Shown here one piece after another: positions 4,548 to 8,766 of a DNA stretch of 64,000 bases (its first letter is position 1; every line of letters begins with the position of its first letter). Under the pieces are notes generated by a model that saw nothing but the letters and a program-made list of their open reading frames with translations, made no database searches and was not told the DNA's origin. Made by a program: the position numbers and the translations under genes. The DNA comes from Absidia repens (lineage: Eukaryota; Mucoromycota; Mucoromycetes; Mucorales; Cunninghamellaceae): NCBI GenBank assembly GCA_002105175.1, contig MCGE01000008.1:620001-684000 (forward strand), in the 5' to 3' direction.

Positions 4548-6912
4548 ATGATAAAGAGCTTTGCTACACGACAATTGGGTGTACAACAAGCACATGCTCA
4601 TGCTAAGGAACGTATAGGGTCTTCAACACTGACTGTCATTACTCGTCGTTTTGATCGTTCATCCCTGCGACCTTATTCATTGACAAGACAACAGCAATCC
4701 CTCTGGACTCTATCAGCTCAATCTGTAGTAAAGTCACGAAAAACATTACCTTCTCTTTTTACCATCAGCAAACGTTTATATAATGGTAAAAACAAAAACA
4801 AAATGGCATATTACATATACAAAACTAATATTCTTTTCCTTCTTTATCTACTTAATAGGCGGTGGAACTCCAGGTGGCGGTCAAGGCGGTTTTCGTTTAA
4901 ATCCAAATAAAGAACAAGCTGAAGAAAAAGCATTGGAGAAATATGTAAGTGTGGTGCTACCAAGCAAGTGTTTTTAATTTAGTATGGCTGGCTGACTCTA
5001 ACTGACATCAATTCTAGGGACTCGACCTTACTGCAATGGCTGAAAAAGGAAAACTAGGTACGATATAAGACATAAGATTGATTATACGTCTAACATTTTT
5101 TTCATCTTCATACCACCTAGATCCTGTCATTGGAAGAGACGAAGAAATCCGCCGAACTCTTGAAGGTAATACCGATTTATTCGCACTACTGATTCAGCTA
5201 TCTATATATATACATATATACATCACATGGCAATACTAACATATAGTTTTTTTTTCGTTTTAGTGTAAGATTATTTTAGAGGATTGTTTATATGACTATC
5301 GTGTATTGATTATTTGGGATGTATGATACTTGAACATAGACTGGCTCGTCGAACGAAGAATAATCCTGTGCTGATCGGTGAAGCGGGGTAAGAAAAAAAA
5401 AGCATAGCATAAAACCCTTGATTGTCTTTAACATCTGCCTTTGAATTTGCATTTGCTGCAGTGTTGGTAAAACAGCCATTGCTGAAGTAAGTAAAACATG
5501 GTATGATTACTACAATAGGTTTCCAACTGATTATTTTTGTACAATTTTTTTTATTAGGGTCTTGCTCAACGCATTGTCGCCAATGAAGTACCGGAATCCA
5601 TTCAAAATAGAAAGGTGGTCGCTCTGGATTTAGGGGTAAGTGGTATTCTATCGCTGAATTTGGAATCAAAACAAATCATCATTATTAACATATATTATAT
5701 CCTTGCCAATATATAGAGTCTTGTGGCAGGTGCTAAATATCGGTAAGTGAGCAAAAGAGGGAACAGGTTGCAATTAATATATCTTACTCTTTTTTTCATC
5801 ATTTAATCTTCATTAGCGGTGAATTTGAAGATCGATTGAAAGGGGTACTTAAGGAAGTCACTGAAGCTGAAGGGCAAATCATTCTATTTATTGATGAAAT
5901 TCACACTTTACTTGGACTTGGTAAATCAGAAGGTGCTATGGATGCAGCAAATTTGATTAAGGTAAGGATTCGCAACAAATCCCTTCATCTCGCTCATCTC
6001 CTTGTATTCTTTTTTATAGCCTGCTCTTGCCCGTGGACAACTTCGTTGCGTTGGTGCAACCACAATTGATGAATATCGCAAGGTATGAAAAAAGACAATA
6101 ATATTTATTAATACAGATTCTGACAATTTCTATTTAACTTACAGTATATCATGTCTGACCCAGCTTTGGCCCGTCGTTTCCAGCAAGTCATGGTAATTAG
6201 TAAAAATTATCTCATCCAAGATAAGAGCTAACAAGCGCATTGTGTGAATTTCGGTTAGGTAAATGAACCCACTGTTCAAGATACCATCTCCATTCTAAGA
6301 GGTCTCAAGGAACGATATGAGATTCATCACGGTGTCCGTATTGCGGTAAAGTAAAAACAATGTGAAAATCCCAATTTTTACTCATCAATCATGACTGTTA
6401 GGATTCTGCATTGGTCTCTGCTGCTATCAACTCAAACCGGTATCTTACGGAAAGGTAAATTACCCAACCGCAAAAAGCAATCAAACTGAAAAAAACCGGT
6501 TGAGTATATAAAAAAGCTTACCTTCTCATTCAATAGGTTCCTTCCTGATAAAGCCATTGATTTGGTGGATGAAGCTTGCTCAAAACTTCGACTTCAACAA
6601 GAAAGTAAACCTGAAGCTTTGGAAAATTTGGATCGGCAAATCATGACAATGCAAATTGAATTGGAATCTCTACGCAAAGAATCAGACATTTTATCCGTTG
6701 AGAGAAGGGAAAAACTGGAATCGGAATTAAAAGCCAAGCAAGACGAAAGCTCAAGGTTAAATTCTATTTGGTCCAAGGAACGTGAAAAGCTGGAAGAAAT
6801 CAAGACTATCAAGCAAGATTTGGAACAGGCTCGTGTAGACTTGGAAACAGGTAAAAATTAGACGTTGAACTCGACACCAACACAGCGTCGATCTTATGTA
6901 CCATTCCTTCTT

Positions 6913-6948
<36 letters not shown>

Positions 6949-8766
6949 TCTATAGCTCAACGTAGTGGAAACTTTCAACGTGCTTCGGAATTACGATATG
7001 GTGCGATCCCTAATCTGGAAAAGAAGTTGCCCAGGTATAAAAAGCAATCTCCCTCCCCCACCCGTCAACTGAAAACGAGGTTTAATGGTTATTTTTATAT
7101 ATACATTTATCTTTAATATAGCTCTGATGATGAAAATGCTGATTCTTTCATTCATGAACGTGTTACATCTGATGATATTGCCCGTGTTGTATCCCGAATG
7201 ACTGGCATTCCTGTCCGGGTAGGTGGATAATTGGGTGGCGATTTATAAACTACTTGGACAAGCTCATCATATACTTCTCTTTTTATCACATAGAATCTTA
7301 TGAAAGGCGAAAGAGAAAAACTACTTCATATAGAAGATGTGTTATCGAAGCGTGTAGTGGGACAGCAAGATGCTATTGTGGTAAGTAATGGCTAGTCTGA
7401 ATATATTCCGTTAAATACCACTTTTTCACTGATTTATATTGTTGCTGAAATAGGCGGTCTCCGAGGCCATCCGGTTAAGCAGGGCAGGTCTTCAAAATCC
7501 CAATCGACCTATAGCCTCCTTCATGTTCCTTGGTAGCAGTGGTACTGGTAAAACGGAATTATGCAAAACCATTGCCAAATTTCTTTTTGACACCGAAAAT
7601 GCTATTGTACGAATTGATATGTCGGAATATATGTAAGTTGCCGCCTTTCCCTTGTGATGATCAATTTTATTCTATTACTGAATCCTGTTGTACGATACGC
7701 TTTATTTTTAGGGAAAAGTTTGCAATCAGTCGACTCATTGGATCTCCTCCCGGTTATGTCGGTCATGAAGAAGGTGGCGAACTGACTGAAGCCGTTCGAC
7801 GTCGTCCATACGCGGTGGTGCTATTGGATGAAATTGAAAAAGCCCATCGCGACGGTAAGAAGAAGAAGAAATAGCTCACGGTTCATCTAAATTAAATCAT
7901 ACTTATTATCTTTTTAGTCTCCAACATTTTACTTCAAGTTCTTGACGACGGTGTATTGACAGATAGTAAGGCAACTGAAAAAACAAGAACCTTACGAAAT
8001 GAGTGGTGCTTTTTTTTACTCATTTCCTGTTTGCACGACGATTTCTTGTAGGTAAAGGCCGGAAAATCGATTTTAAAAACACTATCATCATCATGACATC
8101 GAATCTTGGAAGCAGCGCATTACTGACTGAAGGTAGAAGTGATGATGTGGTAAGCAGTCGTGCGAGGGAATCTGTGATGTCTGCTGTCCGCCAAGCCTTT
8201 GCCCCTGAATTTATCAATCGCATAGATGAAATGGTAAAGAAAAAAAAAATCAAAAAATGAAAATGAAAACATCTATTGAATAATTTTTCTTTTATTATTT
8301 CTATTCTTATGAATAGGTTATCTTCAATCGACTTTCCAGATCGGCCTTACGACAAATTGTTGATGTTCGCTTAGGCGAAGTGGAAGAACGCGTGAAAGAC
8401 CGACGAATCAAACTCGATGTGGACATGGAAGCTCGTGATTGGCTAGGCGAACACGGATACGATTCGAACTATGGTGCTCGTCCACTCAATCGATTGATAC
8501 AAAAGTCGTTACTGAATCCTTTGGCCAGATTATTGATTGATGGCGGTGTCCGAACTGGGGAAACTGCACGTATCCGGGTGAAGCCATTGGAGAATGGTGA
8601 GACAACGCTTGAAGTGGAACGCAATCACGACGCTGGATCGGCTGAAATGGAAAATGGAGAACCGGTTACAGATGCCGCTCCTGTAGGTGAAGAAGAAGAA
8701 CTATTGGAAGATGAATATTTAAAGAAGAAGAAACAAGATGACGAAACTCCTGGTGCTAGTCTGTAG
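4548..8766 (+). CDS. HSP78: Mitochondrial Hsp100/ClpB disaggregase HSP78
   Basis: AAA+ disaggregase of the mitochondrial matrix (family knowledge), 853 aa in my model. Exons: 4548-4785, 4859-4944, 5018-5057, 5121-5165, 5264 (1 nt), 5340-5387, 5462-5486, 5558-5635, 5717-5742, 5817-5961, 6020-6082, 6145-6192, 6259-6345, 6402-6454, 6537-6850, 6956-7034, 7122-7218, 7294-7380, 7454-7632, 7712-7854, 7918-7965, 8052-8233, 8317-8766. The N-terminus is Arg/Ser-rich and acidic-poor, as in a mitochondrial presequence; the ClpN repeat domain is absent, as in yeast Hsp78. NBD1 has Walker A GEAGVGKT, Walker B ILFIDEIH and the pore motif GAKYRGEFEDR. A coiled-coil M domain (exon at 6537-6850) follows. NBD2 has Walker [10 protein letters not shown], pore motif [13 protein letters not shown], Walker [12 protein letters not shown] and sensor TSNLGS. 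The acidic, K-rich tail is unusual. The start is ATG 4548; an upstream in-frame codon at 4533 is TTG. Confidence 0.93.
5264..5264 (+). other. Candidate one-nucleotide exon of HSP78
   Basis: Upstream exon 5121-5165 ends in phase 1 (GAA G) and downstream exon 5340-5387 resumes as A CTG GCT. Exactly one more base (mod 3) is needed to read [22 protein letters not shown] at 5264 lies between a strong acceptor (branch-like TACTAAC at 5234-5240, poly-T, TTTTAG to 5263) and a strong donor (GTAAGA from 5265). The two introns would be 98 and 75 nt, normal for this gene. G+T+A makes Val, where homologues have Val or Ile. Confidence 0.7.

What the first reader, a model, noticed from the sequence alone, without database searches (positions are those of the whole stretch)
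5166..5339. A single-nucleotide exon in HSP78
Seen: the exon before (ending GAA G, 5165) and the exon after (starting A CTG, 5340) are both fixed in frame by the highly conserved [15 protein letters not shown] and [16 protein letters not shown] blocks. Joining them directly shifts the frame and meets a stop. Retaining any piece between other AG sites (5246, 5279) gives the wrong frame or a stop. Only one base, T5264, sits between a near-ideal acceptor (TACTAAC, poly-T, TTTTAG) and a near-ideal donor (GTAAGA). The two introns become 98 and 75 nt; all others in the gene are 56-105 nt, while a single intron of 174 nt would be an outlier. The inserted base completes GTA = Val, where homologues carry Val or Ile. 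Established: one-nucleotide exons are almost unknown; one case in Arabidopsis has been reported (from memory). Inference: the two introns are removed separately, possibly in a recursive-splicing manner because the exon is too short for exon definition.
Basis: partly seen in the sequence, partly recalled or inferred. Interest (0 to 1): 0.88.

Follow-up and report, generated by a model that had tools for sequence, protein, structure and literature searches.

The report
Single-nucleotide exon in fungal HSP78
A mould's gene for a mitochondrial protein-repair chaperone seems to contain an exon only one letter long, without which the protein cannot be read, and many deposited gene models of related fungi break at the same spot, which suggests that this tiny exon is old.

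Summary
The window lies in the contig that carries the deposited Absidia repens HSP78 protein. The gene (4548-8766) reads through 853 codons only if T5264 is kept as a one-base exon between introns of 98 and 75 nt. It is the only AG|N|GT/GC site in the 174-nt stretch. Of 490 one- and two-intron solutions tested, it alone keeps both conserved flanks with no added residue, and it restores the Val of homologues. Both inner splice sites are strong; 0 of 4000 shuffles matched them. The deposited protein differs from my model at one residue, Gly for Val, which needs one extra base at a non-GT-AG junction. Val or Ile is intact in 16 of 69 deposited Mucoromycotina and Glomeromycota models, against 49 of 50 from other early fungi. 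The faults often show the same phase mismatch, so an old shared exon is likelier than an assembly error. It is a new member of a known kind (plant APC11 and VPS55, Fusarium CYP621A). No RNA of A. repens and no genomic DNA of relatives was available, so the ancient origin is indirect.

The parts
4548..8766 (+). HSP78 gene (mitochondrial ClpB-type chaperone), 853 codons, 22 introns counting the two around T5264
   Evidence: open 853-codon model; deposited A. repens protein, 853 aa; ClpB/Hsp104 chains in the PDB, E down to 3.6e-266
5121..5165 (+). upstream exon, ends in phase 1 (GAA G)
5166..5263 (+). intron A, 98 nt, donor GTAATA (score 4.68; the other donors of this gene 3.07-8.71), acceptor TTTTTTTCGTTTTAG (score 10.42; the other acceptors 0.52-10.94)
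5234..5240 (+). TACTAAC branch-point-like motif of intron A, branch A at 5239
5264..5264 (+). single-nucleotide exon T, middle base of the Val codon G-T-A (residue 137)
5265..5339 (+). intron B, 75 nt, donor GTAAGA (score 8.54), acceptor GATACTTGAACATAG (score 2.36); best branch-like motif TATTGAT, a middling match, as in several other introns of the gene
5340..5387 (+). downstream exon, starts in phase 2 (A CTG GCT CGT CGA ...)

Best explanation
T5264 is a real one-nucleotide exon of the A. repens HSP78 gene. Shown from sequence: two canonical GT-AG introns of normal size flank it, and it is needed to complete the Val codon of the conserved [15 protein letters not shown] block. Inferred: the two introns are removed one after the other, because the acceptor of intron A and the donor of intron B are one base apart and could hardly be bound by the U2-side and U1 machinery at once. 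The bases before the second donor read AGT whether or not intron A has been removed (intron A ends TAG, the upstream exon ends AAG), so either order leaves usable sites; intron A first, with its perfect TACTAAC and strong acceptor, is the likelier order. Skipping is disfavoured because it would pair the weaker outer sites across 174 nt, beyond the size of the other introns in the gene, and would give an early stop. Inferred from deposited models of relatives: the same phase-1/phase-2 break sits at this codon in many Mucoromycotina and Glomeromycota, so the exon is probably ancestral to them.
For: Whole 853-codon frame only with T. Of 70 single-intron and 420 double-intron solutions, 7 keep both anchors and only this one adds no residue; it is the only AG|N|GY site. 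Inner sites strong: acceptor 10.42, donor 8.54, 0 of 4000 shuffles. Intron lengths become ordinary. The in-genome paralogue (HSP104-like) has the same block in one open frame with GTG Val; the solved homologue 6d00 has Val. The deposited A. repens protein comes from a contig of the same length, 1,913,450, and equals my model at 852 of 853 residues, Gly for Val at 137. In this DNA that Gly is obtained by borrowing G5166 or G5339 at a non-GT-AG junction, which is what a transcript with one extra base would give when forced onto the genome. Deposited relatives: Val/Ile in 16 of 52 Mucorales and Umbelopsidales, 0 of 1 Endogonales and 0 of 16 Glomeromycota, against 29 of 29 Mortierellomycota and 20 of 21 other early fungi. 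In 22 of 30 faulty models the residue just before the L[ASC]RR block is Arg or Ser, as expected if AG|N is read through in phase 2. P0047 (Phycomyces) and P0121 (Rhizopus azygosporus) begin the junk with Gly-Asn or Gly-Lys (G|GTAA read through) and end it with Arg or Ser. Two cDNA-like contigs that resemble Mucorales have Val (P0011, P0017).
Against: No RNA of A. repens and no genomic DNA of relatives was available. Intron B has a weak acceptor and only a middling branch motif, both within the range of the gene. 16 of 52 Mucorales/Umbelopsidales models have Val intact; I cannot tell whether those genes keep the one-base exon or have fused it. In 8 of 30 faulty models the residue before the block is not Arg or Ser. 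Models are not independent (several per species, shared ancestry). The depositors' own model has Gly, not Val. The genome-wide pattern shows no excess of one-base sites.
Confidence: 0.93

Rival explanations
1. A single 174-nt intron, with a one-base deletion error in the assembly near one exon edge.
For: One missing base is a common kind of assembly error (recalled); a 174-nt intron is possible in fungi.
Against: The rest of the 853-codon gene has no frame error. The 174-nt length is 8.6 SD out for this gene. The one interior AG|N|GY site is strong. The same junction fails in deposited models of many other species.
Confidence: 0.04
2. A real non-canonical splice (GT...TA or TA...AG) that adds one G and makes Gly, as the deposited A. 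repens protein implies; 8 other Mucorales models and one of Rhizophagus irregularis also have Gly.
For: Gly at the codon in the deposited protein and in 10 of 69 Mucoromycotina and Glomeromycota models.
Against: Val or Ile stands there in 49 of 50 other early-fungus models and Val in the two cDNA-like contigs that resemble Mucorales. Phycomyces has three deposits with three solutions: Val, Gly and an insert. Borrowing the G of either splice site gives Gly automatically.
Confidence: 0.02
3. A longer microexon or another donor: 10 nt (5247-5256), 4 nt (5282-5285), 16 nt (5270-5285), or the GC donor at 5197 alone or with a microexon.
For: These leave the frame open and keep both anchors.
Against: They add residues to a block where homologues have none, and each uses at least one donor scoring from -8.49 to -0.94, against 3.07-8.71 for the other donors of the gene. 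The 10-nt reading also uses an AG only 7 nt past the branch A.
Confidence: 0.01
4. A spliceosomal twin intron of [D1,2] type: after removal of intron A, G5165 and T5264 form the first two bases of an outer donor, and no base is kept.
For: The geometry is nearly identical: an inner intron directly followed by T.
Against: It gives ...RRTLETGSSNEE and a stop, and its outer donor GTGTAA scores -0.59 against 8.54 for GTAAGA.
Confidence: 0.005

Closest known systems
Single-nucleotide exon of Arabidopsis APC11 (PMC4674806, outline and first of three parts read; PMC8831610, passages read)
   Same: Nuclear spliceosomal one-base exon between GT/AG sites, needed for the frame, missed by annotation, present in most land plants.
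   Different: Different gene and kingdom; proved by cDNA, mutagenesis and RNA-seq, whereas here the case is by sequence and comparison.
One-nucleotide exon of Fusarium CYP621A (PMC12940212, 2026, outline and first of three parts read)
   Same: Fungal nuclear gene, one base as the middle of a codon (phase 1 to phase 2), in a conserved motif, combined intron more than twice the median size.
   Different: P450 orthologues of Fusarium species, base G, with RNA reads; here a housekeeping chaperone of a Mucorales mould, base T, without RNA, and deposited models that suggest a wider spread.
1-nt microexon of plant VPS55 (PMC8831610, passages read)
   Same: Conserved one-base exon with conserved donor, missing from annotations.
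   Different: In some plants transcripts with and without it coexist; here leaving it out gives an early stop.
Spliceosomal twin introns, [D1,2] type (PMC12403724, abstract start in search listing)
   Same: Two U2-type introns in immediate succession that need consecutive splicing.
   Different: A twin intron keeps no base between its parts; the product would be out of frame here.
One-base exons between self-splicing introns of mitochondrial genes (PMC5436844 abstract; PMC12308204 passages)
   Same: A single base as exon.
   Different: Group I or group II introns of organelles, not spliceosomal introns.

Membership tests
Nuclear single-nucleotide exon | One base directly between a canonical AG and a canonical GT | tested here: met
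   TTTTAG|T|GTAAGA at 5264, the only such site in 5166-5339
Nuclear single-nucleotide exon | The base is required for the reading frame | tested here: met
   853-codon frame with T, early stop without
Nuclear single-nucleotide exon | Flanking introns look competent: sizes and sites as in the rest of the gene | tested here: met
   98 and 75 nt against 56-105; all four sites within the range of the other 20 introns; branch motif strong in intron A, middling in intron B
Nuclear single-nucleotide exon | The base is present in mature mRNA | not testable with these tools
   No RNA of A. repens held; Val in two cDNA-like contigs resembling other Mucorales is indirect
Nuclear single-nucleotide exon | Conserved in related species (seen in the plant and Fusarium cases) | tested here: inconclusive
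   53 of 69 Mucoromycotina and Glomeromycota models lack Val/Ile at the codon, phase signatures in many, but no genomic DNA of relatives
Spliceosomal twin intron [D1,2] | No base kept between inner and outer intron; joined donor works | tested here: not met
   Product stops early, donor GTGTAA scores -0.59
Zero-length-exon recursive splicing site | Donor regenerated with no base added to the mRNA | tested here: not met
   Removing all 174 nt shifts the frame

The most novel reading that the evidence does not exclude
The one-base exon in HSP78 was present in the common ancestor of Mucoromycotina and Glomeromycota and has survived in many of them, while Mortierellomycota lack it. That would make it one of the oldest and most widely shared single-nucleotide exons known, and the cause of the wrong or truncated HSP78 model in most of the deposits listed here. 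The faults in Calcarisporiella and in one Spizellomyces model hint that a tiny exon at this codon could be older still.
Probability: 0.6. Interest if true: 0.75.

Novelty: new member of a known kind. Interest (0 to 1): 0.66.

Why it matters
If confirmed by RNA it would be the second fungal nuclear gene with a single-nucleotide exon, as far as my searches of one open-licence library show, and the first outside the ascomycetes. It sits in a core mitochondrial chaperone with a near-invariant protein block around it, so the loss of one base is easy to score. If it is shared across Mucoromycotina and Glomeromycota, ordinary short-intron fungi have spliced an exon of one base correctly for a very long time, which would make the lower limit of exon size and the order of splicing testable in easily grown moulds. 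It would also explain a systematic fault in public gene models.

Tried and rejected
Single 174-nt intron, retention, other GT or GC donors and AG acceptors (introns of at least 40 nt), longer microexons and the twin-intron reading were enumerated or tested and rejected.

Other one-base exons in the genome: CTAAC-N(8-30)-YAG-N-GTAAGW has 11 sites, against 17, 7 and 11 for two, three and four bases (several of the last 11 are copies of one repeat). The pattern read backwards has 62, 68, 54 and 85. So there is no excess. Around the 10 other one-base sites I listed the longest open frame on each side; I read them by eye only, scanned none against a family library and followed none further.

No fungal locus showed among those listed and I used none.

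Control by other introns: of 52 Mucorales/Umbelopsidales models the junction at codon 137 was broken in 21 of the 49 that span it, by a loose test that passes the 9 Gly models and three faulty ones (P0007, P0031, P0032). Eighteen other junctions were broken in 0 to 9 models (most at intron 6, the next one, and 7 at intron 22). Introns 1 and 16 lie in poorly conserved stretches, were broken in 30 of 32 and 43 of 52, and say nothing.

The pattern miscounted P0111 as broken (its block reads LTRR); one search uses a wider pattern. One search counts 78 of 84 other or unnamed proteins as Val/Ile; two of the remaining six have Val or Ile when read (P0150, P0188), three start downstream (P0055, P0061, P0205) and one lacks the anchor (P0187). 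The Arg/Ser count was set against an assumed background of 15%.

Papers: PMC12940212 and PMC4674806 (outline and first of three parts); PMC8831610, PMC12409088 and PMC12308204 (passages); PMC5436844 (abstract); PMC12403724 (listing only).

Full report
What is there. The window lies in contig C78 (1,913,450 bases) of a 47.4-Mb genome. The deposited protein P0001, named Absidia repens, comes from a contig of the same length, so the organism is very probably A. repens, a mould of the Mucorales (order recalled). The gene is HSP78: the conceptual protein has 853 residues and matches ClpB and Hsp104 chains, the best over residues 90-810. With the 22 introns the frame is open from ATG 4548 to the stop ending at 8766.

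The junction. The exon 5121-5165 ends GAA G and the exon from 5340 begins A CTG. Joined directly they read [16 protein letters not shown] and stop; with the 174 nt retained they stop too. One base is missing modulo three. I enumerated GT/GC-AG solutions within 5121-5387 with introns of at least 40 nt: 70 with one intron and 420 with two. Seven keep both conserved anchors; only the one-base exon T5264 adds no residue. In the 174 nt there is exactly one AG|N|GT or AG|N|GC site, TTTTAG|T|GTAAGA. The finding said that other retained pieces fail; in fact six other open solutions exist, but all add residues, and each needs at least one donor scoring -8.49 to -0.94 where the other donors of the gene score 3.07-8.71.

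Strength against chance. Scored by matrices from the other 20 introns, the acceptor of intron A (10.42; others 0.52-10.94) and the donor of intron B (8.54; others 3.07-8.71, median 8.12) are among the best; the outer donor (4.68) and outer acceptor (2.36) are middling to weak but within range. TACTAAC stands with its branch A 24 nt from the acceptor end. Intron B has only a middling branch motif, as several other introns have. No shuffle of 4000 reached both inner scores; 3 reached the lower quartile, 107 the weakest real sites, and 15 the lower quartile when any exon of 1, 4, 7 ... 31 nt was allowed. Genome-wide, a pattern chosen after seeing the site occurs 11 times on both strands of 47.4 Mb, about 2e-5 per 174 nt on one strand. 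It is no commoner than the same pattern with two (17), three (7) or four (11) bases, and rarer than the pattern read backwards (62), so this pattern gives no sign of a genome-wide class of such exons.

The residue. With T the codon is GTA, Val. The in-genome paralogue (HSP104-like) carries the block in one open frame with GTG at that codon. The solved Calcarisporiella Hsp104 (6d00) has Val. Among the 205 proteins listed in three searches, grouped, Val or Ile stands at the codon in 29 of 29 Mortierellomycota models, 20 of 21 other early-fungus models and 78 of 84 other or unnamed proteins (two more on reading). Calcarisporiella P0059 (faulty) and a plant protein P0035 were left out of the groups. 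The lists are the best 120 hits per search, so they are not a census.

What the relatives' models show. In Mucorales and Umbelopsidales 16 of 52 deposited models have Val or Ile; 9 have Gly and 27 are broken by an insert, a frameshift, a lost piece or a start downstream. The single Endogonales model and the 16 Glomeromycota models are also faulty (together 1 Gly, 16 broken). The contrast 16 of 69 against 49 of 50 has a Fisher value of 3e-18, descriptive only because models share ancestry and some species appear more than once. The faults carry information. Where junk stands before the LARR or LSRR block, the last junk residue is Arg or Ser in 22 of 30 models, as expected when AG|N is read in frame: the downstream exon starts in phase 2. 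In several models the junk begins Gly-Lys or Gly-Asn, as expected from G|GTAA: the upstream exon ends in phase 1. Phycomyces P0047 and Rhizopus azygosporus P0121 show both ends. The deposited A. repens protein is my model with Gly for Val at residue 137 and no other difference. The G of the donor or of the acceptor, borrowed at a non-GT-AG junction, gives that. A transcript alignment that had to place one extra base would produce this; that cause is inferred, and I did not see the record's coordinates. Phycomyces has three deposits with three solutions: Val, Gly and an insert. Two contigs, P0011 (801 aa from a 3315-nt contig, 98.3% identical to the Lichtheimia ramosa model P0042) and P0017 (828 aa from a 2627-nt contig, nearest Thamnidium at 89%), have Val. 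I take them as cDNA-like from their lengths; the source codes lgn and jgi are not explained by the tool.

Results against. 16 of 52 Mucorales/Umbelopsidales models are intact and may lack the microexon; 8 of 30 faulty models do not end in Arg or Ser; P0059 and P0115 look as if the upstream exon ended in phase 0 there; no locus of relatives' genomic DNA was found.

How it works. Shown from sequence: one base between strong sites, ordinary flanking introns, frame dependence. Inferred: because the sites are one base apart the two introns must go one after the other. The donor context AGT|GTAAGA is the same before and after removal of intron A, since both intron A and the upstream exon end in AG. 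Intron A first is likelier on site strength. The weaker outer sites and the 174-nt distance disfavour skipping. The kept base is the middle base of a Val codon, where any change alters the residue, which would help to hold it in place. In Fusarium CYP621A the one-base exon is also the middle base of a codon (PMC12940212, first part read).

Known cases. Arabidopsis APC11 (PMC4674806), APC11 and VPS55 in land plants (PMC8831610), Fusarium CYP621A (PMC12940212), and organellar cases with self-splicing introns (PMC5436844 abstract; PMC12308204 passages). Searches for single-nucleotide exon and synonyms, and for microexons with Mucorales, Mucoromycota, Glomeromycota or hsp78, listed no report of this one; only one open-licence library was searched. 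It is therefore a new member of a known kind. The bolder reading, an exon shared since the ancestor of Mucoromycotina and Glomeromycota, fits the models but needs relatives' DNA and RNA.

Noticed in passing
P0045, P0046, P0047, P0049, P0054, P0119: Six deposited Mucorales HSP78 models carry an extra Pfam domain (PF01263, aldose 1-epimerase by recall), which suggests fused gene models and a shared downstream neighbour in those species.
   Followed up: no
window 9069 onward: Downstream of HSP78 another coding region starts at ATG 9069 (MSDIKQQLEAFSSQAED...), by recall a SURF4/Erv29-like protein.
   Followed up: no
window 6915-6947: A run of 33 T inside intron 15 of HSP78, the longest intron of the gene (105 nt) and the only one for which the branch-motif scan found no candidate.
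   Followed up: no
P0115 (Spizellomyces) and P0059 (Calcarisporiella): Both models carry junk at the same codon but begin Val-Ser, as if GTA AGT were read through in phase 0, and end in Arg before LSRR; this could mean a two-base exon or another arrangement there.
   Followed up: partly
G000:C67:1937613-1937645, G000:C1:2220015-2220057, G000:C32:80469-80502: Other sites with branch motif, acceptor, one base and strong donor; the open frames around them were listed and read by eye only, and none was followed up.
   Followed up: partly
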